Shown: positions 51,097 through 63,837 of the stretch, piece by piece
Position numbering within the stretch: position 1 is the first letter of the stretch
Layout: each line of letters opens with the position of its first letter
Origin: Rhodoferax sp.
GTDB lineage: Bacteria > Pseudomonadota > Gammaproteobacteria > Burkholderiales > Burkholderiaceae_C
Reading direction: 5' to 3'
DNA: 64,000 bases
Assembly (NCBI GenBank): GCA_031291305.1
Contig: JARLJH010000023.1
Span: 149,839-213,838, forward strand
The notes under the pieces: model-generated
What the model was told of the DNA's origin: nothing
Database searches by the model: none
Seen by the model: the letters and a program-made list of their open reading frames with translations, nothing else
Translations under genes and position numbers: made by a program

Positions 51097-54000
51097 TCAG
51101 CGTCGCAGCGCATCCTCATAAGCACGAAACGCCAGACGGACAGTTTCACGCACCTCGTTGTCGTTCCAGGGTTTGGTGAGGAATTTGTAGATGGCCCCTT
51201 CGTTGATCGCCTGGGTCACCGTGTTGAGATCGGTGTAACCTGACAGCACCATACGCATGCTTTGTGGATGCAGTTGCTTGACCCGCGAGAGGAACTCGGT
51301 GCCACTCATCTCCGGCATGCGCTGGTCCGAGATAATCACCTGAACCGCATGGGTGGCCAGCAGATCCAGCCCCTCGCGCGCACTGGTGGTGGTCAGTATC
51401 CGGTAACCATCGCGCCGCAGCAGGCGATTGAGCGAAGACAGCACATTCGGTTCATCATCTACCAGCAGCAGGGTTCGCGTGGCCTCGCCTTCTTCGGGCG
51501 GCGGCTTTACCAGATGACGCTGCTCACGCAACAAGGCTTCGTACTGCGCCGCTGGCAAAGGACGGCTGAAGTAGTAACCCTGAATCTCGTCACAAGCATG
51601 CTGACGTAGGTAGCTTAGCTCGGCGAGTGTTTCAACGCCTTCGGCGATCACACTCAGGCCGAGGTTGTGTGCCATAACAATGATCGTACTGGTGATCGCG
51701 GCCCGGTGAGGGTCTACCGCGACATCATGCACAAAGCTGCGGTCAATCTTCAGGGTCTTGACTGCGAAACGCTGCAGATAACTCAGTGAAGAATGCCCTG
51801 TGCCGAAATCGTCCAGTGAAATCCGTACACCCAGGCGGGTGAGTTCGTTCAGCATTTCGATGGCACTTTCGACATCCTGCATCGCCATGCTTTCAGTGAC
51901 CTCCAGGTCAAGCAAGGTGGCTGGCAGACCAGTATCTGCCAGCACACGCCTGACCAATGGCAGCAAACTGGCGTCGCTGAACTGCCGCGGCGAGAGGTTG
52001 ACAGCGATTCGACCCGCCGACAAACCTGCATCCAGCCAAGCACGGTGCTGACGACAGGCCTCGACCAGAACCCATTCACCCAGCGGCACGATGAGCCCAG
52101 TTTCCTCGGCCAAGGTGATGAATTCCACTGGCGGCACCAAGCCGCGTTCAGGGTGGTTCCAGCGCACCAGCGCCTCGGCAGCGATGACGGAGCCGCTCAC
52201 CAAGTCAACCTGCGGCTGGTAATGCAGCAGAAATTCACCCTTGTCGAGCGCCTTGCGTAACTGGCTCTCCATGGTCAGTCGCTCGTGTACCCGCTGGTTG
52301 ATCTCGGCGGTGAAAAACTGAATGCCATTACGCCCCTGCTCCTTGGCCCGGTACATGGCTGCCTCTGCCTGTCGTAGCAGGCCCGGTGCATCACCCGCGT
52401 CACGCGGGAAGAGACTGACACCTATGCTGACGGACAGCGTCAAGCGTTGTTCCTGTGTCTCAAAGGGTGCCTCCAAGACCGACTGAACGCGTCCGCAGCC
52501 CAGTTGCGCGGCGCGGGCCGCCTCAAGAGCTGGCATGATCAGGACAAATTCGTCGCCACTTAGCCGCGCCAGGGTATCCACATCACGAATACAGCTTTTC
52601 AGTCTGGCGGCAACCTGTCTGAGCAAAGTGTCACCCATGGCATGCCCCAGACCTTCATTGATGGCCTTGAAGCGATCCATATCTATCACGGCCACGGCCA
52701 CCTCGTCGCCGTCACGCGTAGCACGGACCAGTGCCTGATCAAGGCGGTCGGCCAACAAATTGCGATTGGGCAATCCGGTGAGTTGATCGTGGTTGGACTG
52801 GTATTCCAGCGCTGCCTCGTAGCTTTTGCTCTCGGTGATGTCGGTCAGCACCGACACAAAGTGTGTGACCGGGCCGTCATTACGGCGAACCGGAGACACT
52901 GACAGCTCGGTCCAGAACAGACTGCCGTCTTTGCGGTAGTTGCGCAGGACAGCATGACCCTCGCGACCTTCGCGCAGGGCCAGACGGATGCCATCGAGTT
53001 CCGGCTGCTCCATGTCAGCACCCAGCAGGAAGCGCCCATTGCGGCCAACGGCTTCGGCGGCACCATAGCCGGTGATGCGTTCAAAAGCCGGGTTGACGTA
53101 GGTAAACGGGTGGTCGGCACCGAGCACCGAGGAAATCATGATGCCGTTGCTCGAAGCCTCAATCGCCTGCTCACGCAGGTGCAAGGTGTCTTCGCGACGG
53201 CGGGCCGCAATGCCGTAGGCGAGGTCATCAGCGAGTTCCTGCAGCAGTGCCAGCTCTTCGTTGCCGAACGTTTCCTGGCCATCCGTGTGCAACACCAGGA
53301 CACCAAAATGCGTCTGACCAGACACCAGTGGTAACGCGGCACCTGCTTCGCAACTGCAGCGGCGAACGGCATCGTTAGCCGCCGCGTAATAGGCATCGTC
53401 AGCAAAAGACGTGCAGATGGTCGGGCGATCTTGGCCCATTGCTACACCAACGAAACCAGGCCAGTGGATGTTGCTTCCACGATCATGCGTCAGCAGCGCT
53501 GCCTCCACACGGCCTGCGGGGACCATCATGACAGGTCGTAACACGGCCTCGTTACCCGGCTCGGGCATGCCCACCCAGACCAGGCAATACCCGCCGACTT
53601 CGACCAGGATGCGTCCAAGTTCGGTCAGCAGGGTGGTCTCGTCACCGGTGCGCACCAGCGCATTGTTTCCTGCACTGAGCACGCGCAAGGTGCGGTTCAA
53701 TCGCTCTAGCGCAGCTCGGGCCAATCGCCGCTCGGTGATATCTTCTTTGACGGCGATGAAGTGTGCAATCTCTCCTGCATCGTCGCGCATGGGCGCGATC
53801 ACCTCAAACTCCCAGAACAGCTCGCCGTTTTTCTTGCGATTGCACACTTCGCCGCGCCATTCGTGGCCAGCCAGTAGCGTTCGCCACATCTCAACATAAA
53901 CCTCATTGAGGGTCAGACCGGACTTGATCAGCCGTGGTGTCTGGCCCAATGTTTCTGCGGCGGTGTAGCCGGTGAGTTCGGTGAATTTCGGGTTGACGTA

Positions 54001-55185
54001 TTCGATGTGTCCCTGGCGATCAGTGATCATGACCGTCACCGGGCTTTGCTCCACGGCCTGGTTCAGATTGCCAAGGCGCTGGTTGACTGCGGCAAGTTCC
54101 TGGGTGCGCAACTCAACCTGACGTCGCAACAATTGTGGTTGACGCAACAAGACATACGATAGATAAGCCAGCAATGAGCTGGCCAACAGGGCCAACAAAA
54201 ATTCAACCAGCAACGACGGGTAGGAATGCCAGCCAGTGTTGGGTACAACACTCAGTACCCACGGGCTGTTGGATATCTGAATGTCGTACTCCACCGGATC
54301 ATCCAGTACATCGAGGGTGGACTGCGCTAGGACAGACGCACGGGCACTGGCGTCGCTGCGAACCAAACGGTATCGGTAGCCAGCCTCGGTCATCTGCTGC
54401 AGGTTACCGATGTGCATCAGCTCATCCATCCTGACAACAGCCGTCACGAAGCCCCAGAAATGCGCCGACTCGCCGTTGCCAAGAAACACCGCCAGCCGCC
54501 CAAGCAGGCCATCACTGCCGTCGCGCAGCTTCAGGGGGCCTTCGAGCTTGACTGTCCGGCTGTCCAGCGCCTTGCGTGCCGTCGGATATCGCAAGGGATT
54601 GCTTAGAAAGTCGGTGCCGACGGCAAGTCCGTTGTCTGCAGGAGGAACAATCTCCGCCACCACCCCACCAGGGGCCAGCGCCAGTTCGCTGACCCCTGGG
54701 TAGAGTGGCAACATCTGGGTCGTCAAGCTCGCAAAGTTCTCAACGCGGCCCTGTCCCTGCCGCACCATGGCTGCCAGTGCATAGGTTGCCGACATGGCGC
54801 GATCAATCTGCATCTGCAGTGCGTGCGCATGGCCTGTTGCCCGATCCAGTGCAATAGCCCGGCGCTGCTGCACCCGGACGCTTTCAATCCCGGTGATAAC
54901 CCCAATTCCCAAAGCCAGGGAAACAAGGAAAACGCCAGCACAAGCCCATCGCACACGCGTGTCGGTCAACAGCTTCACCGTTGCTGGCTCGCCAGCGTTA
55001 CGTCCGGCCAACCAGTAAACAAGCCCCCCGTTGATCAGGATAAAGGTGAGGCCCTTGAACGACTGCCAATCGGTGAGCACGCCCGAATCGCCCATCAGCG
55101 CAGCAAGCCATTGATCGGACAGGTAGATCCAGGTTGCCGCCAGGACCAGATACAAAATCGTCGTGCGAAGACGGAAAGAGGGCAT
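51097..55185 (-). CDS. Membrane CHASE-PAS-GAF-PAS-GGDEF-EAL protein with C-terminal receiver
   Basis: 1362 residues. In order: membrane segments near 8-24, 42-60 and 80-100; a CHASE-like periplasmic domain (about 110-300); another segment at 323-347; PAS (378-485); GAF (505-660); PAS (670-790); GGDEF (795-955); EAL (975-1220); receiver (1237-1360). The cyclase signature is SGDEF (876-880), altered in its first Gly. The EAL domain keeps AAEALVRW, LDLEVTES, DDFGTG, LKIDRSF and AEGVET, so phosphodiesterase activity is likely. The receiver has DDE (1243-1245), phospho-acceptor D1287 and K1338 and resembles RpfG/HupR receivers. Start at 55185; the frame continues upstream over the divergent SPFH gene. 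Confidence 0.9.
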   Translation of the reverse strand: MPSFRLRTTILYLVLAATWIYLSDQWLAALMGDSGVLTDWQSFKGLTFILINGGLVYWLAGRNAGEPATVKLLTDTRVRWACAGVFLVSLALGIGVITGIESVRVQQRRAIALDRATGHAHALQMQIDRAMSATYALAAMVRQGQGRVENFASLTTQMLPLYPGVSELALAPGGVVAEIVPPADNGLAVGTDFLSNPLRYPTARKALDSRTVKLEGPLKLRDGSDGLLGRLAVFLGNGESAHFWGFVTAVVRMDELMHIGNLQQMTEAGYRYRLVRSDASARASVLAQSTLDVLDDPVEYDIQISNSPWVLSVVPNTGWHSYPSLLVEFLLALLASSLLAYLSYVLLRQPQLLRRQVELRTQELAAVNQRLGNLNQAVEQSPVTVMITDRQGHIEYVNPKFTELTGYTAAETLGQTPRLIKSGLTLNEVYVEMWRTLLAGHEWRGEVCNRKKNGELFWEFEVIAPMRDDAGEIAHFIAVKEDITERRLARAALERLNRTLRVLSAGNNALVRTGDETTLLTELGRILVEVGGYCLVWVGMPEPGNEAVLRPVMMVPAGRVEAALLTHDRGSNIHWPGFVGVAMGQDRPTICTSFADDAYYAAANDAVRRCSCEAGAALPLVSGQTHFGVLVLHTDGQETFGNEELALLQELADDLAYGIAARRREDTLHLREQAIEASSNGIMISSVLGADHPFTYVNPAFERITGYGAAEAVGRNGRFLLGADMEQPELDGIRLALREGREGHAVLRNYRKDGSLFWTELSVSPVRRNDGPVTHFVSVLTDITESKSYEAALEYQSNHDQLTGLPNRNLLADRLDQALVRATRDGDEVAVAVIDMDRFKAINEGLGHAMGDTLLRQVAARLKSCIRDVDTLARLSGDEFVLIMPALEAARAAQLGCGRVQSVLEAPFETQEQRLTLSVSIGVSLFPRDAGDAPGLLRQAEAAMYRAKEQGRNGIQFFTAEINQRVHERLTMESQLRKALDKGEFLLHYQPQVDLVSGSVIAAEALVRWNHPERGLVPPVEFITLAEETGLIVPLGEWVLVEACRQHRAWLDAGLSAGRIAVNLSPRQFSDASLLPLVRRVLADTGLPATLLDLEVTESMAMQDVESAIEMLNELTRLGVRISLDDFGTGHSSLSYLQRFAVKTLKIDRSFVHDVAVDPHRAAITSTIIVMAHNLGLSVIAEGVETLAELSYLRQHACDEIQGYYFSRPLPAAQYEALLREQRHLVKPPPEEGEATRTLLLVDDEPNVLSSLNRLLRRDGYRILTTTSAREGLDLLATHAVQVIISDQRMPEMSGTEFLSRVKQLHPQSMRMVLSGYTDLNTVTQAINEGAIYKFLTKPWNDNEVRETVRLAFRAYEDALRR

Positions 55186-55392
55186 CGTCGGTGGCTCCAG
55201 GAAGATGGATTCCTTTGACTGTGGAATTCTGCGCTGATTCATTCTATGCCGCATGTTCAGCAACTCGCTACCTACCGGACATCCAGCCGTGCATACGCAA
55301 GCGCGCGAGCCTTTTGATGTACCAACTTGGACGGCATGGTGCATTCTTGCCCTGTGTATCATGCCGATTCCACATTGGCACAGGAGCAGCAC

Positions 55393-56427
55393 ATGGCACT
55401 CATGGACTTCATCAGAAAACAGTTCATCGACATCATCCAGTGGACCGAAGACGCGGACGGCACGCTGGCCTGGCGCTTTCCGATGGCTGATATGGAAATC
55501 CAGAATGGCGCGCAGTTGGTGGTGCGCGAATCGCAGATGGCGCTGTTTGTCAACGAGGGCAAGGCCGCCGACGTATTTGGCCCCGGCACCTACAAGCTCA
55601 CCACGCAAACCCTGCCGGTACTGACCTACCTGAAGAACTGGGACAAGCTGTTCGAGTCACCGTTCAAGAGCGACGTGTATTTCTTCAGCACGCGCCAGCA
55701 AGTGGACCAGAAGTGGGGCACACCGCAACCCATCACCATTCGCGACGCCGACTTTGGCGCCGTGCGCCTGCGCGCCTTTGGCAACTACAGCTTTCGCGTG
55801 GCCGACCCCAAACTGTTCCAGACCGAAATTTCTGGCACGCGTGAACGCTATGAAACGGTGGACATCGACGGCCAGTTGCGTGGTCTGGTGCTGCAAAACA
55901 TCAGCAATGCGGTGGCGGGCAGCGGCATTGCGTTTCTGGACCTGGCCGCCAACCAGCTCAGCTTTGCCCAGGCCCTGACGCGCCAGCTCGGCCCCGAATT
56001 CGAAAAAATCGGCCTCCAGCTCGAAGGCATGACGGTACAAAACGTCTCGCTGCCCGAAGAACTGCAAAAGATCATGGACCAGAAGATCGGCATGGGCATG
56101 GTCGGTAACGACATGGGCAAATTCATGCAATACCAGACGGCGCAGGCGATTCCCAAATTTGCCGAAGGCGCGGGTTCCGGCGGTGGTGGCAGCGGCATTG
56201 CCGGCGATGCCATGGGTCTGGGGGCTGGCGTGGCATTGGGTCAAGTGTTGGCGCAGAACCTCTCAAGCGGGTTGCAGGGCCATGCAGCGCCTGCCGCTGC
56301 GGTGGGTGTGAAGGCTGAGGATGTGATGGCTACCTTGGAGAAGCTCGGTGAACTCAAGACCAAGGGCATCCTGACGCAGGAAGAGTTTGATGCGAAGAAG
56401 GCGGAGTTGTTGAAGAAGTTGGTCTGA
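55393..56427 (+). CDS. SPFH/Band-7 'virion core'-like protein with C-terminal SHOCT domain
   Basis: 344 residues. It begins MALMDFIRKQFIDIIQWTED and RESQMALFVNEGKAADVFGP, typical of the YdjI-like SPFH proteins. The SPFH core runs to about 240 (LPEELQKIMDQKIGMGMVGN), then a Gly-rich linker with the sequence AEGAGSGGGGSGIAGDAMG and a SHOCT module at about 310-344 (LGELKTKGILTQEEFDAKKA). SPFH proteins make membrane-associated oligomers. GGAG lies 7 bp before the start. First of a plus-strand group with DUF4178, DUF350 and a membrane aminopropyltransferase. Confidence 0.88.
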   Translation: MALMDFIRKQFIDIIQWTEDADGTLAWRFPMADMEIQNGAQLVVRESQMALFVNEGKAADVFGPGTYKLTTQTLPVLTYLKNWDKLFESPFKSDVYFFSTRQQVDQKWGTPQPITIRDADFGAVRLRAFGNYSFRVADPKLFQTEISGTRERYETVDIDGQLRGLVLQNISNAVAGSGIAFLDLAANQLSFAQALTRQLGPEFEKIGLQLEGMTVQNVSLPEELQKIMDQKIGMGMVGNDMGKFMQYQTAQAIPKFAEGAGSGGGGSGIAGDAMGLGAGVALGQVLAQNLSSGLQGHAAPAAAVGVKAEDVMATLEKLGELKTKGILTQEEFDAKKAELLKKLV

Positions 56428-56469
56428 CTTTTTTGCCCCGACAGCAAGCCACCGCATTCATTTTTAAGT

Positions 56470-56790
56470 GATTTTCTCCCCCCCTATCCCCCCCGCCCCT
56501 TCCCACCCCCACCGGGGCGGGAAGGGGAGCCAACAGCCGTATTTGGCCGTCGCTCTTTTTGGAAGAAGTACATCTCGAACGGTCTGTGGCGGGATGGGTG
56601 AAATACCTGCGTTGCTGGCAGAAACGGGCCACGGCACCAAGCCAAACCCACCGTCATTGGGCATCACGGCCACCGGCCAAGCGATTTGTACGTCCTCTCA
56701 AAGAAGACATGGCCAAATATGGCTGTTAGCTCCCCTTTTCGCCCCGGCGGGGGTGAAAAGGGGCGGGGGGGATAAGGGGGGATCAGCGTC
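56470..56790. repeat. Large imperfect inverted repeat (class C)
   Basis: Left arm about 56478-56597, right arm about 56662-56784, in opposite orientation. Shared blocks include CCCCTATCCCCCC / its complement, CCCCGCCCCTT, AAGGGGAGC, AACAGCC-TATTTGGCC and GAAGtACaTC-like sequence. Each arm also contains its own hairpin (CCCCTTCCC with GGGAAGGGG on the left, CCCCTTTTC with GAAAAGGGG on the right). It fills most of the 425-bp gap between the SPFH and DUF4178 genes and contains no credible gene, although a 131-codon frame runs through it. Confidence 0.75.
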
Positions 56791-56852
56791 AGCCCCGCAG
56801 GGCAACGTCGCCAGCGCAGAACGCAGTTCAAACCGAGGCCGAGCCGTTCCCC

Positions 56853-58490
56853 ATGGCGACTGACCAACCGCAACGGTCCTACCGCACCCTGTGTCCCGGC
56901 TGTGGTGCGCCGCTGAACTTCAGCAGCGCCCAGTCCAGCCATGCTGTCTGCGGCTACTGCCAGAGCACGGTGGTGCGCAACGGCGAGGTGTTGCAGCGTC
57001 TGGGCAAGATGGCCGAACTGTTTGACGACCACAGCCCGTTGCAGTTGCAAGCCCGCGGCACCTGGCGTGGGCAAGCGTTCACGCTGGTCGGGCGCTTGCA
57101 ATACAAATACGCCGAAGGCACCTGGAGCGAGTGGTTTGCCGTGCTGGCCGACGGCAGCAGCGCTTACCTGAGCGAAGACAACGGCGCCTATGTCTGGGCT
57201 GTGGCGCAAACACAATCGCGCGAGTTGCCGCCCGCTGAGCGTTTTCGCGTCGGCGCCACCACGGCCATCAATGGCCAGAGCTACAGCGTCGCCTCCAACC
57301 AGCAGGTGATGCTGCTGGCCGCGCAGGGCGAGTTGCCGCACTTGCCCGCGCTGGGGCAGCCGTTTGCGATGGTCGAGTTACGCAGTCAGAGCGCGGCTGC
57401 AACGCCTGAACAGAATGGCAACGGCAGCGCGGCGACCGACGGCACCAGCATGATTGGCCGCAACTTGCGCAGCACGGCGGCAGACACGGCGGGCCATGCC
57501 CCTGCGTCGTCTGGCGGTGGCAGTGTGCTCAGCATCGACTACAGCAGCCAGCCGCCCAGCATCACAGTCGGCCAGTCGGTGCGACTGGAAGACCTCCAGC
57601 TGACGGGTCTGCGCGATGAGTCCGTCAAAGATGAGAAGGGCCGCCAGTTCAACTGCCCGAACTGTGGCGCACCGGTGACGGTGACTCTGGCCGCCAGCCA
57701 GAGCATCACCTGCCCGAGCTGCAACAGCCTGATCGATGTGTCGCAAGGCATTGGTGGTGAACTCAAGCACGCCCTGCAAGACGAGCCGGTGCGCCCGCTC
57801 ATCGCGTTGGGCAGCGTTGGCCAATTGCAGGGCGCGCCCTGGCAGGTGGTGGGTTTTCAGCACCGCCTGGGCGTGGACCCCAGCGACCCGGATGAGCACT
57901 TCGGCTGGGAAGAGTATTTGCTGTACAACCAGCAACGCGGCTTTATCTTTCTGGTGGATTCGACCGAGGGCTGGAGCGTGGTCAAGCCCTGCACCGGTGC
58001 GCCGGTGATGACCGCCAATGGCCAAAGCGCCACGTATCTGGGCACGCGCTATACGCTCAAAGAAAGTTACAACGCGCAAACCACTTACGCGCTCGGCGAG
58101 TTTTACTGGCAGGTGTCGCGAGGGCAGCGCACCAGCAACCGCGACTTTGCCAGCGGTGCCAACCTGCTGTCGATGGAGCAGTCGCCTAACGAGCTGGTCT
58201 GGTCGGTGGGCAGCCAGATCGACAGCGCCAAGGTGGCCGCCGCGTTCAAGTTGCAAGCGCAACAAAACCTGCTGCAGCGCAGCGATGTCGGCCCGGTCAG
58301 CTTTGGCTCAGCCATGAGCGTGCGAACGCTGATCGTGATCTTTGTGCTGTTGCTGCTGTTTTCTACACTGATCAGCCGTTGTTCGAGTTGCGACCCGGCG
58401 GTGCAGAACTGCTCGTCGGGCTACGTCGGCGGCGCGCGCAGTTCAGGTGGCTCGTTTGGTGGTTTTTCCAGTGGTGGCGGGCACAAATGA
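56853..58490 (+). CDS. DUF4178 protein with two zinc ribbons and a C-terminal membrane anchor
   Basis: 545 residues. A first zinc ribbon (Cys14, Cys17, Cys33, Cys36 in LCPGCGAP...HAVCGYC) precedes one DUF4178 copy (about 50-170). A second ribbon (NCPNCGAPVTV...ITCPSC, near 268-290) precedes a second DUF4178 copy (about 315-460). A membrane helix (LIVIFVLLLLFSTLI, near 492-506) and a Cys- then Gly/Ser-rich tail (GGSFGGFSSGGGHK) close the protein. Its function is not known. It is followed by DUF350 and aminopropyltransferase genes, a combination I believe recurs in proteobacteria. Confidence 0.85.
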   Translation: MATDQPQRSYRTLCPGCGAPLNFSSAQSSHAVCGYCQSTVVRNGEVLQRLGKMAELFDDHSPLQLQARGTWRGQAFTLVGRLQYKYAEGTWSEWFAVLADGSSAYLSEDNGAYVWAVAQTQSRELPPAERFRVGATTAINGQSYSVASNQQVMLLAAQGELPHLPALGQPFAMVELRSQSAAATPEQNGNGSAATDGTSMIGRNLRSTAADTAGHAPASSGGGSVLSIDYSSQPPSITVGQSVRLEDLQLTGLRDESVKDEKGRQFNCPNCGAPVTVTLAASQSITCPSCNSLIDVSQGIGGELKHALQDEPVRPLIALGSVGQLQGAPWQVVGFQHRLGVDPSDPDEHFGWEEYLLYNQQRGFIFLVDSTEGWSVVKPCTGAPVMTANGQSATYLGTRYTLKESYNAQTTYALGEFYWQVSRGQRTSNRDFASGANLLSMEQSPNELVWSVGSQIDSAKVAAAFKLQAQQNLLQRSDVGPVSFGSAMSVRTLIVIFVLLLLFSTLISRCSSCDPAVQNCSSGYVGGARSSGGSFGGFSSGGGHK

Positions 58491-58524
58491 CGCGCCCTCA
58501 CACTTATTTTTGAAGGAGATCAGC

Positions 58525-58746
58525 ATGGGATTTGAAGCGTTGAAACCGGGGCTGTTGTTGGGCTCAGTCGTGTACGCGCTGCTGGGCGTGATCATCTTCT
58601 GGCTGTGTTTCATCATCATCGACAAGCTCACGCCCTACAACCTGTGGGAAGAAATTGTCGAGAAGCAGAACCGCGCACTGGGCATGGTGGTGGCAGCCAT
58701 GTCGCTGGGCATCTGCATCATCGTCGCCGCCGCCATTCATGGGTAA
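58525..58746 (+). CDS. DUF350-family small membrane protein (YjfL-like)
   Basis: 73 residues with two hydrophobic segments: LLGSVVYALLGVIIFWLCFI and ALGMVVAAMSLGICIIVAAA. Between them is the amphipathic DKLTPYNLWEEIVEKQN typical of DUF350. Longer YjfL proteins have two to four such units; this is a single unit. The start at 58525 is preceded by AAGGAG with good spacing; the open frame upstream overlaps the DUF4178 gene end. Function unknown. Confidence 0.85.
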   Translation: MGFEALKPGLLLGSVVYALLGVIIFWLCFIIIDKLTPYNLWEEIVEKQNRALGMVVAAMSLGICIIVAAAIHG

Positions 58747-58833
58747 GGCGGCGCACGCCATGCGTCGTTGCACTGGCATTCGGGTGCTGACTGGGGCGTG
58801 TGGACACCGTGATGCCTCGTCACAAGACTTATA

Positions 58834-58887
58834 CGCCAAAATGCCTTCTAGCCCAATAAACACCTTGGCATATAGCTATCAATTTTT
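58834..58887 (+). repeat. Family A dispersed repeat
   Basis: AAAATGCCTTCTAGCCC, AATAAACACCTTGGCA, TATAGCTATCAATTTTT. It lies between DUF350 and the aminopropyltransferase gene, ending 10 bp before the GTG start, so it occupies the ribosome-site region. Confidence 0.75.
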
Positions 58888-58896
58888 AATATTGCC

Positions 58897-60480
58897 GTGA
58901 GTGTGTCGAATTTGAATTCAACTCCGGTGGCCAGCGCCGCCAACCCGCGCCCGCTCGAAGTGGCGCTGCTGGCGTCCGTTTTCATCGTCTCGGCCTGCGG
59001 GCTGGTGTACGAACTCGCCGCCGGGGCGCTGGCATCCTATCTGCTGGGCGACTCGGTGCTGCAATTCTCGACGGTCATCGGCACGTATCTGTTTGCCATG
59101 GGCGTGGGCTCGTACTTGTCGCGCTTCTTCGAGCGCCAGCTTCCCGCCCATTTCTTACGGATAGAACTGCTTGTAGCCCTTATCGGCGGATCGTTACCAG
59201 CTCTACTATTTATAGCAAATGCAGCACTCCCAGGGGCTTTTCGACCGCTGCTGTACGGCCTGGTGCTGGCGGTCGGCACCCTGGTCGGGCTGGAAATCCC
59301 GCTGGTCATGCGCATCCTCAAGCGCAACGTAGCTTTGCGCGACCTGGTGTCGCAGGTGCTGACTTTCGACTACCTGGGCGCTCTGGCGGTGTCGCTGGCG
59401 TTTCCGCTGGTGCTGGTGCCGCATCTGGGGCTGGTGCGCACCGGCTTGCTGTTCGGCCTGATGAACACGGGCGTGGCGGTGTGGGCGCTGTGGCTGTTTC
59501 GCCATGAACTGCGTCAGTGGCCAGCTCACGCCATGGCGTGTGCGCTGACACTGGCCGCGCTGGGCCTGGGCATGGCGGGTGCCGATGCGGCCACCAGCTG
59601 GGCCGAAGACAAGCTGTACCAGGACCATGTGGTGATCGCCCAAACCACGCCTTACCAGCGCATTGTGGTCACCCACGCGCCGGGTGAGGGGCGCCCCGGT
59701 TACCGGCTGTTTTTGAACGGCAACCTGCAGTTTGCCGAGCGCGACGAGTACCGCTACCACGAGGCCTTGGTGCATCCCATCATGTCGGCCTATGCGTCTG
59801 CTGGCGCGGCACCCAGAAAAGTGGCCGTGCTGGGCGGTGGCGACGGCATGGCGGTGCGTGAGATTCTCAAATATCCCGGTGTGCAAAGCGTCACGCTCGT
59901 GGAGCTGGACCCGGCCATGACGCAGCTGTTCAGCACCCAGCCAGCGCTGGTGCAGCTCAACCACGCCTCGCTGACCTCGCCCAAGGTCAAAGTCGTCAAC
60001 GCCGATGCCTTCACCTGGCTGGAAGGCCATTCGGACATGTTTGACGTGATCGTGGTGGATTTCCCCGACCCGACCAACTTCAACATCGGCAAGCTCTACA
60101 CCAACTCGTTCTACGCCCTGCTGGACAAGCACTTGGCGGCCAGTGGCTACGCGGTGATCCAGACCACCTCGCCACTGGTGGCGCGGCAAAGTTTCTGGAC
60201 CGTGGTCGCCACCATCGAGTCGGTCGGCCTGACGGCCACGCCGTACCACGCCAACGTGCCGAGTTTTGGCGAGTGGGGTTACATCATTGCCAGCCGCAGG
60301 CCGTATCGTCTGCCAACCACATTGCCAGCGGGCTTACGCTTTCTGGATGTGGCCAGCCTACCCCCGTTGTTTGACTTTCCGCTGGACATGGCACGGGTAC
60401 CTGCCGAGGTCAATCGGCTGTCGAATCAGGTGCTGGTGACCACCTATGAGCGCGAGTGGGGGCGGGTGATGGCGCACTGA
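58897..60480 (+). CDS. Membrane-bound polyamine aminopropyltransferase (spermidine synthase-like)
   Basis: 527 residues. Residues 1-225 hold about seven membrane segments (VALLASVFIVSACGLVYELA, STVIGTYLFAMGVGSYLSRF, LYGLVLAVGTLVGLEIPLVM). The rest is a spermidine-synthase fold with YQRIVVT, LFLNGNLQFAERDEYRYHEA, the AdoMet-type GGGDGMAVREILK, VELDPAM and the DFPDPTNFNIGKLYTNSFY active-site loop. Such proteins transfer aminopropyl groups, but the true substrate of the membrane-fused type is unsettled. The start is GTG 58897. Last gene of the SPFH-DUF4178-DUF350 group. No AdoMet decarboxylase gene is nearby. Confidence 0.88.
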   Translation: MSVSNLNSTPVASAANPRPLEVALLASVFIVSACGLVYELAAGALASYLLGDSVLQFSTVIGTYLFAMGVGSYLSRFFERQLPAHFLRIELLVALIGGSLPALLFIANAALPGAFRPLLYGLVLAVGTLVGLEIPLVMRILKRNVALRDLVSQVLTFDYLGALAVSLAFPLVLVPHLGLVRTGLLFGLMNTGVAVWALWLFRHELRQWPAHAMACALTLAALGLGMAGADAATSWAEDKLYQDHVVIAQTTPYQRIVVTHAPGEGRPGYRLFLNGNLQFAERDEYRYHEALVHPIMSAYASAGAAPRKVAVLGGGDGMAVREILKYPGVQSVTLVELDPAMTQLFSTQPALVQLNHASLTSPKVKVVNADAFTWLEGHSDMFDVIVVDFPDPTNFNIGKLYTNSFYALLDKHLAASGYAVIQTTSPLVARQSFWTVVATIESVGLTATPYHANVPSFGEWGYIIASRRPYRLPTTLPAGLRFLDVASLPPLFDFPLDMARVPAEVNRLSNQVLVTTYEREWGRVMAH

Positions 60481-60632: not shown

Positions 60633-60715
60633 CAATTGTGTGCAGCCCTGTGACAGCCTCGGCTTTCAGGGGATCAAAGTCGTTCCCAATCTGGTCCGTT
60701 TTAGGCACTAGGACC

Positions 60716-61885
60716 ATGGCGCGGCTTTGTGTTGACGGTGGTGAGGTGTCCTTGGGCATGGCGCCTGGGCAGGCCATCAAACGGATGGACTTGATTTACT
60801 TCAAGGCCGGCGGTGGGCACCTCGCGGCTGCCAGGGCACTGGAGCAAGTCATGCAAGGCGGACCCTGGCAGGTGCGCCTGGTTAACCTGTTTGAGATCCT
60901 TGACCCCAATGGCGTGTTTTTCAACACCCTGGGGGTTCAGCCGGAAGATTTTTACAACAAGCTTCTAGCCCGCGGCATGACCCTGGGCATGTCGCAAGAG
61001 TTGAAGCTGCTGCAAAAAGCCATCCGGCTCAGCCACAAGGCGATGGTGCGCAAGATGCACCAGCATTGGTTGGACAAGCAGCCGGACATGGTGGTTTCCG
61101 TCATTCCCAATTTCAACCGCGCCCTGTGTGAAAGCCTGAAGATGGCGCGGCCCCAAACGCCCTACGTCACCGTGATCACCGACATGGCGGATTACCCGCC
61201 GAATTTCTGGATCGAGCCCGACCAGCCGCAGCACGTGGTGTGCGGTACGGCCCATGCCGTGCAGCAGGCTTTACTGGCAGGGTGCGCACCAGAGCGCGTC
61301 CACCAGTCTTCCGGCATGATCCTGTCGCCTCGGTTTTATGACATCGCCCCCATCGACCGTGTGGCGGAACGCCGCCAGCATGGGTTCGATGAGCATCAAG
61401 CCGTCGGGCTGGTGATGTTTGGCGGCTACGGTGCCGGGGTGATGAAGCGCATTGCGGCGGCGCTGAGTGATACCCCACTGATTCTCATCTGCGGCAAAAA
61501 CGCGGTGCTGGCCGAGACGCTGCGTGCCATGCCCAGCCGGGCGGTGCATGTGGTGGTTGAATTCACCAATGACATGGCCTACTGGATGCAGCTGGCGGAT
61601 TTTTTCATCGGTAAGCCCGGCCCGGCCAGCCTGAGCGAAGCGGTGCACATGGGTTTGCCGGTCATCATCACCCGCAGTGTCTGGACCATGCCGCAAGAGC
61701 GCTGGAACACCGAGTGGGTACGCAAGCATGGCTTGGGTGTGGTGCATCGCAGCTTTCGCAGCGTACGCTTGGCGGTGCAGGAAATCGTCAGCCAGTTACC
61801 GGCATGGCAGAGTAATGTGCGGCAAATCCGAAATCGAGCGATTTTTGAAGTGCCACAGATTCTGGCCAACATTGATCAATCCTGA
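60716..61885 (+). CDS. MGDG-synthase-like glycosyltransferase (GT28 type)
   Basis: About 389 residues. The N-terminal half resembles the MGDG_synth domain: IYFKAGGGHLAAARALEQVM (acceptor/lipid side), then VVSVIPNFNRALCESLKMAR and VTVITDMADYPPNFW. The C-terminal half has GLVMFGGYGAGVMKRIAAAL and FIGKPGPASLSEAVHMGLPV, the nucleotide-sugar grip of GT28 enzymes. It probably adds a sugar to diacylglycerol or another lipid at the inner membrane. The start is uncertain: ATGs at 60638, 60716, 60758 and 60785 are in frame. Its end overlaps the convergent EAL gene by 10 bp. Confidence 0.8.
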   Translation: MARLCVDGGEVSLGMAPGQAIKRMDLIYFKAGGGHLAAARALEQVMQGGPWQVRLVNLFEILDPNGVFFNTLGVQPEDFYNKLLARGMTLGMSQELKLLQKAIRLSHKAMVRKMHQHWLDKQPDMVVSVIPNFNRALCESLKMARPQTPYVTVITDMADYPPNFWIEPDQPQHVVCGTAHAVQQALLAGCAPERVHQSSGMILSPRFYDIAPIDRVAERRQHGFDEHQAVGLVMFGGYGAGVMKRIAAALSDTPLILICGKNAVLAETLRAMPSRAVHVVVEFTNDMAYWMQLADFFIGKPGPASLSEAVHMGLPVIITRSVWTMPQERWNTEWVRKHGLGVVHRSFRSVRLAVQEIVSQLPAWQSNVRQIRNRAIFEVPQILANIDQS

Positions 61886-63771
61886 AACTCCGAGGCCAGC
61901 CGCACCGCCAAACCACTTTCGCAGGACTTTGCCTCGTGCTTGGCACGCGCGGCGATGGAGGCCACCTGCTCGGCGTTGCTGAATTTCTGATGGTCAATCT
62001 TGACGGCACCAATCGAGAGTGTTGTCAACGGGAAAAACCGGGGTACACCGTAGCGGTCTTCTGCTTGTATCCCGCCAGCAATGCGGGCAGCTTCGTCAAA
62101 TAGACCGAGCGCTTGTGTGGCGAATTCGGAAATGATGGACTCGCACTGGGTTTGCCAGTTGTCGCTTTGGTACAGCACGATGAAATCGTCACCGCCTACA
62201 TGACCCAGGAAGTCGCTGCGTGGGTCGCAATGCGCCTGGCACAGTTTGGCCAGCAGGCGGATCATCTCGTCGCCGCGCCAGTAGCCATACTGGTCGTTGA
62301 AGGGTTTGAAGTTGTTCAGGTCGGCATAGCAGGCCACAAATTCAACCCCTCTGGCCAGCAGTCGCTCAATGTGCTGGCTGATCGGGATGTTGCCCGGCAA
62401 GTAGGTCAAAGGGTTGGCGTGGCGTGCAGCCTCGATGCGGGTTTCGGTCACGGAGCGTACCAACTGGTCTCCGGTGCCCAGGCCTTCGTAACGGCCGTTG
62501 TTGGTGACAATGAAACCATCGACCAGATAGCGCTGGTCTTCCGAGGTGAGAATACCCACCAGTTCATCGACATTGTGGTTGCGCTCGATGATGCGGGCGT
62601 CCTGGTTGGCGTGCACCAAGCAGGATTTGTGCCCCCATATCTCGCGGTAATACAACTTGCTGTATTCGTTCATGAAGGCAGCGCGGTTGATGATGGCCAC
62701 GGGTCGGGTGCCATCGACCACGGCCAGCGCGTGGAGTTTGGGCTGCTCAAAAAATACCCTTGCCAACTCATCATTGGTTGTCGACGGACCGACCGTCGGG
62801 GCCTTGATCACCGCCAGGCGACTGATGGAACCAGTGTTTGCGGCCCGGCGCAATTCCGGAAACACGGCAACCGTGCGATCCCGAACAACAACACGGGCTT
62901 TGGGTTCGATCTGGGTGCGCGGTGCACGACCTGGCCGCCCCAGCAGGTAGCCCTGGCCGTACGGCAGGCCCATATCGCGCAAAACCCGCATATCGTCTTC
63001 GGTTTCAATACCCTCGGCAATCAACGAGGTGTCGAAGATGGCCGCAATTTGCTGCAGGGCCTGAATGGTTTTGAGCTTGTCAGCGTGTTGACTGATGGCT
63101 TTGGTGAAGTACTTGTCGATCTTCACAAACTCTGGCTTGAGCTGCGACCACAACCTCAGGCTGGAGCGCCCGTCGCCAAAATCGTCCAGCGCAAGAGACA
63201 CACCGGCTGAGCGAATTTCCTGCACGGCACCTGCCAGCGAGTCCATGTCCGACACACGCTCGTACTCAGTGATCTCCAGCACCAGCATGCGCGGCGACAC
63301 GCCATAAGCCTGCGCCAGCCGGATCAGACTGTCGCAGCCAGATTGCTTGAGGACTTGCTGCAACACATCGGCACTGATGTTGAGAAAAAGGCGACCCGGC
63401 TCGCCCAAATGTCCCCAGCGCTCCATGGCCAGCAAGACGCATTGATTTTCAAACTCGTAGTTCAGATTCTCGTGTGCGGCGGCCTGCAGCAACGCATCGG
63501 GGGTGTGAAATGAGGTCTGGTCGGGACCTCTGATCAAGGCCTCATGCGCATAAATCTCCCCGTCGCTCAGCGACGCAATAGGCTGAAACAGCGGATAAAG
63601 CTTGTTGTGTCGCAACAGCGAGGCCAGGGGACCACGACCGCGCTTCACACCGTGAGAACCCGTGATGAATGGTTTCAGCTGTAGGTGCGGCTTGACCTCT
63701 GGCTCGGCCAGCTCCGGGTAGTACCCGATAAAAGGAAGCGCAGACGATCCTGCCAGTTGGATATTGTTCAT
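61876..63771 (-). CDS. EAL-CBS-GGDEF cyclic-di-GMP protein
   Basis: About 631 residues, with the EAL domain first (about 55-300): YPLFQPIASL, HEALIRG, LFLNISAD, LEITEYE, LALDDFGDGRSSL and AEGIETEDD are intact. A CBS-pair-like region follows (about 310-445), then GGDEF (about 460-610) with HVGGDDF as the signature. No membrane segment is visible, so cytoplasmic. The frame opens at ATG 63837, but that lies inside a PhoB-like box, and MNNIQLAGSSALPF at 63771 is preferred. It converges with the glycosyltransferase gene. Confidence 0.88.
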   Translation of the reverse strand: MNNIQLAGSSALPFIGYYPELAEPEVKPHLQLKPFITGSHGVKRGRGPLASLLRHNKLYPLFQPIASLSDGEIYAHEALIRGPDQTSFHTPDALLQAAAHENLNYEFENQCVLLAMERWGHLGEPGRLFLNISADVLQQVLKQSGCDSLIRLAQAYGVSPRMLVLEITEYERVSDMDSLAGAVQEIRSAGVSLALDDFGDGRSSLRLWSQLKPEFVKIDKYFTKAISQHADKLKTIQALQQIAAIFDTSLIAEGIETEDDMRVLRDMGLPYGQGYLLGRPGRAPRTQIEPKARVVVRDRTVAVFPELRRAANTGSISRLAVIKAPTVGPSTTNDELARVFFEQPKLHALAVVDGTRPVAIINRAAFMNEYSKLYYREIWGHKSCLVHANQDARIIERNHNVDELVGILTSEDQRYLVDGFIVTNNGRYEGLGTGDQLVRSVTETRIEAARHANPLTYLPGNIPISQHIERLLARGVEFVACYADLNNFKPFNDQYGYWRGDEMIRLLAKLCQAHCDPRSDFLGHVGGDDFIVLYQSDNWQTQCESIISEFATQALGLFDEAARIAGGIQAEDRYGVPRFFPLTTLSIGAVKIDHQKFSNAEQVASIAARAKHEAKSCESGLAVRLASEFQD

Positions 63772-63815
63772 TGAACGCCATGAATCTGTCGGGAGAGCAG
63801 AACAGTTTATGAAAA

Positions 63816-63837
63816 GTAAATGACATTCATGTGACAT
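63816..63837 (-). promoter_or_regulatory. PhoB-like direct repeat
   Basis: On the minus strand ATGTCACATGA is followed at once by ATGTCATTTAC: two TGTCA cores exactly 11 bp apart, as in the Pho box (CTGTCAT-N4-CTGTCAT). It lies 45-66 bp upstream of the chosen start of the EAL-CBS-GGDEF gene. It suggests induction under phosphate limitation. Confidence 0.45.

What the first reader, a model, noticed from the sequence alone, without database searches (positions are those of the whole stretch)
55393..60480. SPFH/SHOCT - DUF4178 zinc-ribbon - DUF350 - membrane aminopropyltransferase group
Seen: four plus-strand genes in a row encode an SPFH protein with SHOCT tail, a double DUF4178 protein with two four-Cys ribbons and a membrane anchor, a single-unit DUF350 protein and a seven-helix protein fused to a spermidine-synthase fold. 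Known: SPFH proteins build membrane scaffolds, spermidine synthases use decarboxylated AdoMet, and DUF350/YjfL-type genes occur near PspA-like genes in E. coli. Inference: a membrane-stress or lipid/protein-modifying system in which the aminopropyltransferase acts on something other than free putrescine. The PspA-like and AdoMet-decarboxylase genes I would expect in related clusters are absent here.
Basis: partly seen in the sequence, partly recalled or inferred. Interest (0 to 1): 0.75.

Follow-up and report, generated by a model that had tools for sequence, protein, structure and literature searches.

The report
Membrane aminopropyltransferase with lysine-tail partner protein
Four neighbouring bacterial genes belong to a known but unexplained membrane system, and nearly every relative examined also encodes a membrane-anchored protein whose floppy tail ends in the same amino acid, lysine, which makes that lysine a testable candidate for what the enzyme modifies.

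Summary
The four genes are as described. The module (7TM-SpeE + DUF350 + DUF4178, with PspA or an SPFH protein) is real, conserved and already in print (PMC11237479, which cites a 2019 study of AdoMet decarboxylase); so is the idea of a non-putrescine substrate.

New here:
(1) "Missing" partners exist, unlinked: speD on one contig, an FAD amine oxidase with a Tat-type signal on another. In 120 same-family genomes the oxidase set equals the 7TM-SpeE set (70 of 70 against 0 of 50).
(2) 30 of 30 diverse full-length 7TM-SpeE systems, and 76 of 80 close relatives, encode a membrane-anchored tail ending in lysine. Here it is the end of the DUF4178 protein (...GGGHK); elsewhere a separate tiny protein (Novosphingobium ...PSHK) or, in PspA-type loci, other lipoproteins or small proteins (...RGGK). 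Strict-criterion background: 0-0.2% of ORFs.
(3) Loop charges in 110 of 110 homologues, and near absence of cysteine, suggest the SpeE domain lies outside the cytoplasm, with the tails and the oxidase.

Best reading: a membrane-tethered aminopropyltransferase that caps a C-terminal lysine, giving a spermidine-like end. Acceptor and dcAdoMet export are inferred, not shown. E. coli YjfM/YgiB, beside peptide-spermidine ligases, end in Gly-Gly (46 of 49 homologues).

The parts
55393..56427 (+). SPFH (Band_7_1) protein with C-terminal SHOCT domain, 344 aa, no cysteine
   Evidence: no PspA hit in the window; the SPFH gene is missing in some relatives, e.g. L071, L079, L086, L088
56853..58490 (+). 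Double zinc-ribbon/DUF4178 protein with one C-terminal membrane helix and Lys-ended tail, 545 aa
58320..58379 (+). Membrane helix of the DUF4178 protein (residues 490-509)
   Evidence: helix H490-509 in the model; hydrophobic stretch read from the sequence
58437..58487 (+). Conserved C-terminal tail RSSGGSFGGFSSGGGHK (residues 529-545); last two residues His-Lys
   Evidence: HK in 76 of 76 complete homologous ORFs of L002-L081; the only one of 494 window ORFs of 45 aa or more that is Gly/Ser-rich and ends in Lys
58525..58746 (+). Single-unit DUF350 membrane protein, 73 aa
   Evidence: found in 24 of 24 genomes with 7TM-SpeE
58897..60480 (+). 7TM-SpeE fusion (NF002956), 527 aa
   Evidence: the only Spermine_synth domain found in this genome
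58951..59577 (+). Seven-helix membrane part of SpeE (residues 19-227)
   Evidence: model m95b210513935; hydropathy; loop charges
59617..60477 (+). Aminopropyltransferase domain (residues 241-527); D316, D388, D391, Y287, H288 invariant in 110 sequences
   Evidence: no cysteine

Best explanation
The four genes are the core of a membrane-bound protein-aminopropylation module. SpeD, encoded elsewhere in this genome, makes decarboxylated AdoMet (dcAdoMet) in the cytoplasm. The seven-helix SpeE protein holds its aminopropyltransferase domain on the outer (periplasmic) face of the inner membrane and transfers the aminopropyl group to the side chain of the invariant C-terminal lysine of a Gly/Ser-rich tail, here the tail of the DUF4178 protein. 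A lysine side chain ends in the same four-carbon amine as putrescine, so the product would carry the spermidine skeleton at the tip of a flexible membrane-anchored tail. In this branch an exported FAD amine oxidase then oxidises or removes the modification. SPFH (or PspA) and the zinc-ribbon DUF4178 domains are the cytoplasmic scaffold or sensor; DUF350 and/or the seven-helix part would bring dcAdoMet across the membrane. Supported by computation: gene association, intact catalytic residues, lysine tails, charge bias, cysteine depletion, Tat-type signals on the oxidase. Inferred: lysine as acceptor, dcAdoMet export, action of the oxidase, scaffold roles, a role in membrane stress.
For: Association. 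Oxidase (E <= 1e-20) in exactly the 70 of 120 same-family genomes that have 7TM-SpeE over its cut-off and in none of the 50 others; downstream on the same strand with less than 1 kb between the matches in 56 of 70; speD in 69 of the 70. Only one Spermine_synth domain found in this 99.99%-complete genome. Lysine-ended tail in 30 of 30 diverse full-length 7TM-SpeE systems (24 genomes including this one, 6 plasmids), 26 by a strict criterion and 4 by a looser look; in some loci fused to DUF4178, in others separate, in PspA-type loci on proteins of other clusters. In the 80 close loci the tail is seen in 76. Background of the strict criterion: 4 of 3,556 other ORFs in the diverse stretches, 18 of 10,561 in L002-L081, 0 of 349 in 20 canonical speE loci, 0 of 723 in 30 speD loci, 1 of 930 in 50 DUF1190 loci. 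Topology: even loops richer in K/R than odd loops in 110 of 110; cysteine 5 in 31,233 residues of the SpeE domain against 47 in 5,182 of 20 canonical SpeE. Catalytic residues invariant. The oxidase of this genome begins MARLRSDRRHFLTAGIGTALPLAGC, a twin-arginine motif plus lipobox (motifs recalled).
Against: No experiment. Export of dcAdoMet is unknown and no transporter is identified. Cysteine absence is not proof: the SPFH protein, which shows no export signal, also lacks cysteine in 71 of 71 close homologues. The SpeE model is of moderate quality (pLDDT 73.6), and helices 2 and 7 have borderline hydropathy in some sequences. Charges flanking the helix of the small tail proteins do not all favour tail-out. 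Two of 24 genomes (G037, G057) show no speD of either class. In 4 of 80 close loci no tail was seen; L048 and L064 are cut short, but L009 and L032 have 8-9 kb upstream without a DUF4178 gene. Some tails end in IK or VK rather than HK or GK. The oxidase is in only 11 of 31 diverse stretches; L093 has SPFH and an HK tail but no oxidase in its stretch. In the eight genomes that have both SpeE types, speD lies beside the canonical speE. Conserved C-termini alone are not special: the SPFH protein ends KKLV in 64 of 71. The tail lysine could be a binding or targeting signal.
Confidence: 0.4

Rival explanations
1. The membrane SpeE is an ordinary spermidine synthase tethered to the membrane, with SpeD as its partner; the neighbours are bystanders or regulators.
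For: All catalytic aspartates, Y287 and H288 are invariant; in this genome it is the only SpeE-like protein found and speD is present; the domain fold matches spermidine synthases.
Against: 8 of 70 same-family genomes with 7TM-SpeE also have a second, canonical-type SpeE beside their speD (G082, G202, G206, G211, G217, G254, G270, G303). Strict co-occurrence with a specific exported-type oxidase and with lysine tails. Predicted outward orientation. Recalled from the abstract of Li et al. 2019, not read here: fusion proteins of this kind did not complement an E. coli speE deletion and their hosts lacked spermidine.
Confidence: 0.15
2. The domain aminopropylates something else at the membrane (a lipid, a cell-wall component or an exported small amine), and the lysine tail only binds the enzyme or a membrane component.
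For: A membrane enzyme facing outward could use many acceptors; in this genome speD lies directly upstream of an OlsA-like acyltransferase gene and near an OlsB-like gene (both score below the curated cut-offs of those NCBIfam models).
Against: No Ols-like neighbour within 1.5 kb of speD in 29 of 29 other genomes of the family looked at. The tail ends in lysine although it sits on different proteins, which fits a reacting residue better than a loose binding patch.
Confidence: 0.25
3. The lysine tail is primarily the substrate of the FAD amine oxidase (lysyl-oxidase-like cross-linking), and SpeE makes a separate product.
For: The 11 diverse stretches with the oxidase all have a tail ending HK or, in L148, GK; the nearest solved relatives of the oxidase are putrescine oxidases (weak, FAD-binding stretch only).
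Against: Lys-ended tails occur without an oxidase in the stretch in the PspA-type loci and in L093, L094, L096, L151; those genomes were not searched for an unlinked copy.
Confidence: 0.08
4. The SpeE domain is cytoplasmic and modifies a cytoplasmic partner; the topology inference is wrong.
For: dcAdoMet is made in the cytoplasm; helix 7 is weak in some sequences; the SPFH protein, presumably cytoplasmic, is equally cysteine-free.
Against: Charge bias in 110 of 110 sequences and a 57-fold lower cysteine frequency than canonical SpeE; lipoprotein tails and the Tat-signal oxidase should be outside.
Confidence: 0.2

Closest known systems
PSP 'second major group' operons: CesT/Tir-PspA dyad + 7TM-spermidine-synthase fusion + DUF350 + DUF4178 + lipoprotein (PMC11237479, passages read; also noted in a passage of PMC10948618)
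   Same: 7TM-SpeE, DUF350 and DUF4178 in one operon
   Different: No PspA, DUF2170 or such a lipoprotein hit in the window; SPFH-SHOCT instead; FAD oxidase and speD unlinked in this genome. The passages read do not mention Lys-ended tails or an outward SpeE domain.
MFS-type membrane protein/SpdSyn fusions with AdoMetDC and DUF350 (Li et al. 2019, Biochem J 476:2579; not held, abstract recalled)
   Same: Same fusion, same partners, same idea of a non-putrescine acceptor
   Different: No acceptor named, as far as recalled; this report proposes one
E. coli yjfIJKLMC and ygiBC (DUF350 YjfL, DUF1190 YjfM/YgiB, peptide--spermidine ligase YjfC/YgiC as annotated in RefSeq)
   Same: DUF350 (in yjf) plus a protein with Gly/Ser-rich low-complexity tail plus a polyamine enzyme
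   Different: Tail ends Gly-Gly (46 of 49) and the enzyme is a ligase, not an aminopropyltransferase; no such ligase hit in 31 stretches of relatives
Soluble spermidine synthase (e.g. 1uir, 1inl, 2o06)
   Same: Fold and catalytic residues of the C-terminal domain
   Different: Seven membrane helices, nearly cysteine-free domain, invariant P455/F457/G458/W460/G461 (PSFGEWG), a run not seen whole in the five aligned solved relatives

Membership tests
NF002956 membrane-type polyamine aminopropyltransferase | Full-length match over the curated cut-off | tested here: met
   671.4 bits, cut-off 472, positions 11-520 of 522
NF002956 membrane-type polyamine aminopropyltransferase | N-terminal multi-helix membrane part plus intact catalytic residues | tested here: met
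   seven helices; D316, D370, D388, D391, Y287, H288, Q278 invariant in 110
Membrane SpdSyn fusion with AdoMetDC (Li et al. 2019) | AdoMet decarboxylase in the same genome | tested here: met
   G000:C17:7415-7807, PF02675 E 4e-23
Membrane SpdSyn fusion with AdoMetDC (Li et al. 2019) | Does not act as spermidine synthase | not testable with these tools
   needs assay; prior result recalled from an abstract not held here
PSP group-2 operon (PMC11237479) | 7TM-SpeE, DUF350 and DUF4178 together | tested here: met
PSP group-2 operon (PMC11237479) | PspA and CesT/Tir (DUF2170) genes in the operon | tested here: not met
   no hit in the window with two PspA profiles and one DUF2170 profile at E 0.01, nor by tblastn at 1e-3
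PSP group-2 operon (PMC11237479) | Novel lipoprotein gene in the operon | tested here: not met
   no hit with a five-sequence profile of the lipoproteins seen in relatives; a Lys-ended tail is instead on the DUF4178 protein
Ordinary spermidine synthase | Uses putrescine as acceptor | not testable with these tools
   sequence does not settle it
YjfC/YgiC peptide-spermidine ligase system | ATP-grasp ligase next to a DUF1190 protein with Gly-Gly end | tested here: not met
   no YjfC/YgiC hit in the window; no DUF1190 match in own genome
SPFH/flotillin family | Band 7 domain | tested here: met
   PF13421 262 bits, PF01145 63.5 bits

The most novel reading that the evidence does not exclude
Bacteria cap the flexible tails of membrane-anchored proteins with polyamine groups by two unrelated chemistries: aminopropylation of a C-terminal lysine by membrane SpeE outside the cytoplasm (this system) and amide ligation of spermidine to a C-terminal glycine (YjfC/YgiC with YjfM/YgiB). 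The last residues of the tail match the enzyme (Lys with SpeE, Gly-Gly with the ligase), and DUF350 serves both. This would be a new post-translational modification and, as far as I know, the first extracytoplasmic use of decarboxylated AdoMet.
Probability: 0.26. Interest if true: 0.93.

Novelty: new variant of a known kind. Interest (0 to 1): 0.75.

Why it matters
The acceptor of the membrane-bound spermidine-synthase fusions is, as far as I know, an open question. A named peptide (the last residues of the DUF4178 protein or of its tail-bearing stand-ins) makes it answerable with one mass-spectrometry experiment. If right, it adds a new protein modification, gives AdoMet decarboxylase a job in bacteria without another aminopropyltransferase, and ties the PspA/SPFH membrane operons and the E. 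coli yjf/ygi operons to one chemical theme.

Tried and rejected
Ornithine-lipid substrate: this genome's speD lies 87 bp upstream of an OlsA-like gene, which converges with an OlsB-like gene (scores below the curated cut-offs); neither is within 1.5 kb of speD in 29 of 29 other family genomes looked at. Rejected as conserved context.

Genes between DUF350 and SpeE in some relatives as hidden partners: in L008, L019, L030, L031, L044, L053 and L055 they look like arginine-deiminase, restriction-modification, TonB-receptor, transporter and transposase-type genes (by reading translations, no family search); L069 showed nothing clear; no speD recognised. Rejected.

Downstream glycosyltransferase as a fifth member: 0 of 80 loci carry a relative at E 1e-10. 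Rejected.

Cysteine depletion as proof of outward topology: weakened by the SPFH control; kept as support only.

Fold of DUF4178: no PDB match with E <= 0.001 (best 0.015 at probability 0.08; the highest probability among the 50 listed is 0.69 for Cap15 7n35 at E 0.11; sequence search). Foldseek on the SpeE model: the 50 matches listed of 1,191 are soluble aminopropyltransferases, so the seven-helix part stays unassigned. Home-made gene calls put some genes on the wrong strand in GC-rich loci; tails were re-derived from all stop-bounded frames.

Full report
OBSERVATION. The four genes are present on the plus strand as described. SPFH 55393-56427 (Band_7_1, SHOCT); DUF4178 56853-58490 (two domains, two four-Cys ribbons, one C-terminal helix); DUF350 58525-58746 (73 aa, half of the 133-position profile); 7TM-SpeE 58897-60480 (NF002956, 671 bits against a cut-off of 472). 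Nearest relatives are Rhodoferax and other Comamonadaceae.

ASSOCIATION. Of 80 loci found with the SpeE protein, 71 carry all four genes, all on one strand. Of the nine others, L004, L048, L058, L064 and L074 are cut by contig ends; L071 and L079 lack SPFH, L032 lacks SPFH and DUF4178, and L009 shows SpeE only, although there is room. In some loci unrelated genes of up to about 6 kb sit between DUF350 and SpeE. In 199 genomes of the phylum, 24 have 7TM-SpeE over the cut-off. DUF4178 at E <= 0.001 occurs in 18 of these 24 (17 over the cut-off) and in 0 of 175 others; DUF350 in 24 of 24 and 41 of 175; Fisher P 8e-21 and 7e-14 (genomes are related, so these are not strict probabilities). The six without a DUF4178 match are G040, G052, G057, G109, G138, G169. 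AdoMet_dc is in 20 of the 24, class-2 decarboxylase in two more (G138, G169), none found in G037 and G057.

UNLINKED PARTNERS IN THIS GENOME. One Spermine_synth domain was found, the window's, one DUF350, and one speD on contig 17 (L107 7415-7807, minus strand). Relatives show an FAD amine oxidase downstream of SpeE or beside speD. In 120 genomes of the same family the oxidase (E <= 1e-20) occurs in 70, exactly the 70 with 7TM-SpeE over its cut-off; 50 have neither. Match to match, it is downstream on the same strand within 1 kb in 56, within 10 kb in 9, further in 1, and on another contig in 4, this genome among them (L140). speD is in 69 of the 70 (not G245) and in 8 genomes without 7TM-SpeE. 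Of eight oxidase N-termini read, all show a double arginine near the start before a hydrophobic stretch, six with a lipobox-like Cys (L085, L086, L088, L089, L140, L149; not L090, L091; motifs recalled, starts partly chosen by me), so export is likely. Its nearest solved relatives are putrescine oxidases, by a weak match to the FAD-binding stretch only, so its substrate is open. Among 31 diverse stretches the oxidase is in 11: L084-L091, L148-L150. One annotated Novosphingobium operon shows the whole set in order: SPFH, DUF4178, DUF4178, a 48-aa protein, DUF350, SpeE, FAD oxidoreductase, speD.

LYSINE TAIL. The DUF4178 protein ends in a membrane helix and a Gly/Ser-rich tail. Its last residues are HK in 76 of 76 complete homologous ORFs of L002-L081 (GGGHK 58, GGSHK 18), and in L084, L086-L089 and L093 (L093 from another family). 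The other four of the 80 loci (L009, L032, L048, L064) show no DUF4178, and none shows a tail beside SpeE. Where the DUF4178 protein has an acidic or other end, a tiny one-helix protein encoded nearby carries the tail: L149 Novosphingobium ...GPSHK (annotated, 48 aa), L090 ...GPTHK, L091 ...IPTHK, L085 ...GGGHK, L094 and L096 ...GRIK. In PspA-type loci the tail is on proteins of other clusters: large ones, mostly with a lipobox (L092, L097, L098, L104, L153, L155, L156; L101 has none visible), or small one-helix proteins (L095, L100, L103, L105, L106), ending GK. L155 and L156 are the DUF350 stretches of G052 and G057, whose SpeE lies on another contig. Plasmids add L148 Gemmatirosa ...RHGK, L150 ...GSHK, L151 ...NRVK, L152 ...ESGK, L153 ...SSGK. 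Seven of 13 plasmid hits were fetched; the seventh, L154, has a truncated SpeE and no such tail near it. In all, 30 of 30 diverse full-length systems; 26 by the strict rule (Lys last, at least 7 Gly/Ser in the last 20, ORF of 45 aa or more), and L090, L091, L148, L149 by a looser look. Controls with the strict rule: 29 of 3,581 ORFs qualify in 31 diverse stretches, 25 of them the tail gene of their system; 94 of 10,637 in L002-L081, 76 of them the DUF4178 gene; 0 of 349 in 20 canonical speE loci; 0 of 723 in 30 speD loci; 1 of 930 in 50 DUF1190 loci; 1 of 494 in the window, the DUF4178 gene itself. A conserved C-terminus alone is not special within close relatives (SPFH ends KKLV in 64 of 71); the point is the recurrence on different proteins.

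TOPOLOGY. The model (pLDDT 73.6) has seven long helices before the enzyme domain. K and R concentrate in loops 2, 4 and 6; even loops exceed odd loops in 110 of 110 sequences (window, 80 close, 29 diverse). By the positive-inside rule the enzyme domain lies outside. The domain has 5 cysteines in 31,233 residues (110 sequences), the membrane part 255 in 27,123, and 20 canonical SpeE domains 47 in 5,182 (L211 and L219 contributed short pieces). Against: the SPFH protein is also cysteine-free, 0 in 71 of 71 close homologues; helices 2 and 7 are weakly hydrophobic in some sequences. Lipoprotein tails are outside by their lipobox; for the small tail proteins the charge evidence is mixed.

CHEMISTRY. 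Forty-two positions are invariant in 110 sequences, among them Q278, D283, E284, Y287, H288, D316, D338, D370, D388, D391 and the loop residues P455, F457, G458, W460, G461. The fold matches spermidine synthases. From recalled structures, D316, D388 and D391 correspond to the dcAdoMet- and amine-binding aspartates. So an active aminopropyltransferase is likely, and a lysine side chain presents the same four-carbon amine as putrescine. That lysine is the acceptor is my inference.

COMPARISON. E. coli YjfM and YgiB end ...HWGG and ...SMGG. DUF1190 was found in 71 of 397 genomes; of 50 stretches looked at (the 30 best-scoring and 20 more), a gene was identified in 49, and 46 end GG, 2 GS, 1 GT; 44 of 50 have a YjfC/YgiC-like ligase and 28 a YjfL-like DUF350 hit in the short stretch. 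RefSeq names YjfC and YgiC peptide--spermidine ligases; the paper behind that (Pederick et al. 2023) was seen only as a citation in PMC10948618. Tail end and enzyme thus go together: Gly-Gly with a ligase, Lys with an aminopropyltransferase.

LITERATURE. PMC11237479 (passages read) describes the CesT/Tir-PspA + 7TM-SpeE + DUF350 + DUF4178 + lipoprotein operon, a band-7/SHOCT variant with AdoMet decarboxylase and polyamine oxidase in a neighbouring group, and suggests sensing of polyamines or aminopropylation of other substrates, citing Li et al. 2019. That 2019 paper is not held; its abstract is recalled. A search for 'aminopropylation' with 'C-terminal lysine' found 0 papers; two broader searches listed nothing that names this system in title or abstract start. 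Within these searches I did not see the lysine tail or the outward topology in print; the 2019 paper and supplements could not be checked.

JUDGEMENT. The module and the non-putrescine idea are known. The exact coupling to a Tat-signal oxidase, the recurrent lysine tail and the likely outward enzyme domain are new leads that name a concrete acceptor. Confidence is about 0.9 that the module is a functional unit, 0.65 that the enzyme domain faces outward, and 0.40 for the whole mechanism.

Noticed in passing
window 56477-56590 and 56669-56782: Long inverted repeat (114-nt arms, 79% complementary, 78 nt apart) in the gap between the SPFH and DUF4178 genes; looks like an intergenic repeat element.
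   Followed up: no
L107 5689-7807: This genome's speD lies just upstream of an OlsA-like acyltransferase gene, which converges with an OlsB-like N-acyltransferase gene; not seen beside speD in 29 relatives.
   Followed up: yes
window 60638-61885: MGDG-synthase/diglucosyl-diacylglycerol-synthase-like glycosyltransferase just downstream on the same strand; 0 of 80 related loci have a relative.
   Followed up: partly
window 51097-55188 and 61876-63837: Minus-strand GGDEF/EAL proteins lie on both sides of the stretch, one with CHASE, PAS, GAF and response-regulator domains.
   Followed up: no
L058: A 3.1-kb contig labelled Akkermansia muciniphila carries DUF4178, DUF350 and a SpeE 75% identical to the window's; probably a misbinned contig.
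   Followed up: no
family genomes G272, G286, G292: These have a speD like this genome's but no 7TM-SpeE, no amine oxidase at E 1e-20 and no other SpeE hit at E 1e-10: orphan decarboxylases or incomplete assemblies.
   Followed up: no
L153 10449-11555: An Alteromonas plasmid operon of this kind has a gene annotated as toxic anion resistance protein and no gene annotated as PspA.
   Followed up: no
window 55393-56427: The SPFH protein has no cysteine in 71 of 71 close homologues, unexplained for a protein without an evident export signal.
   Followed up: no
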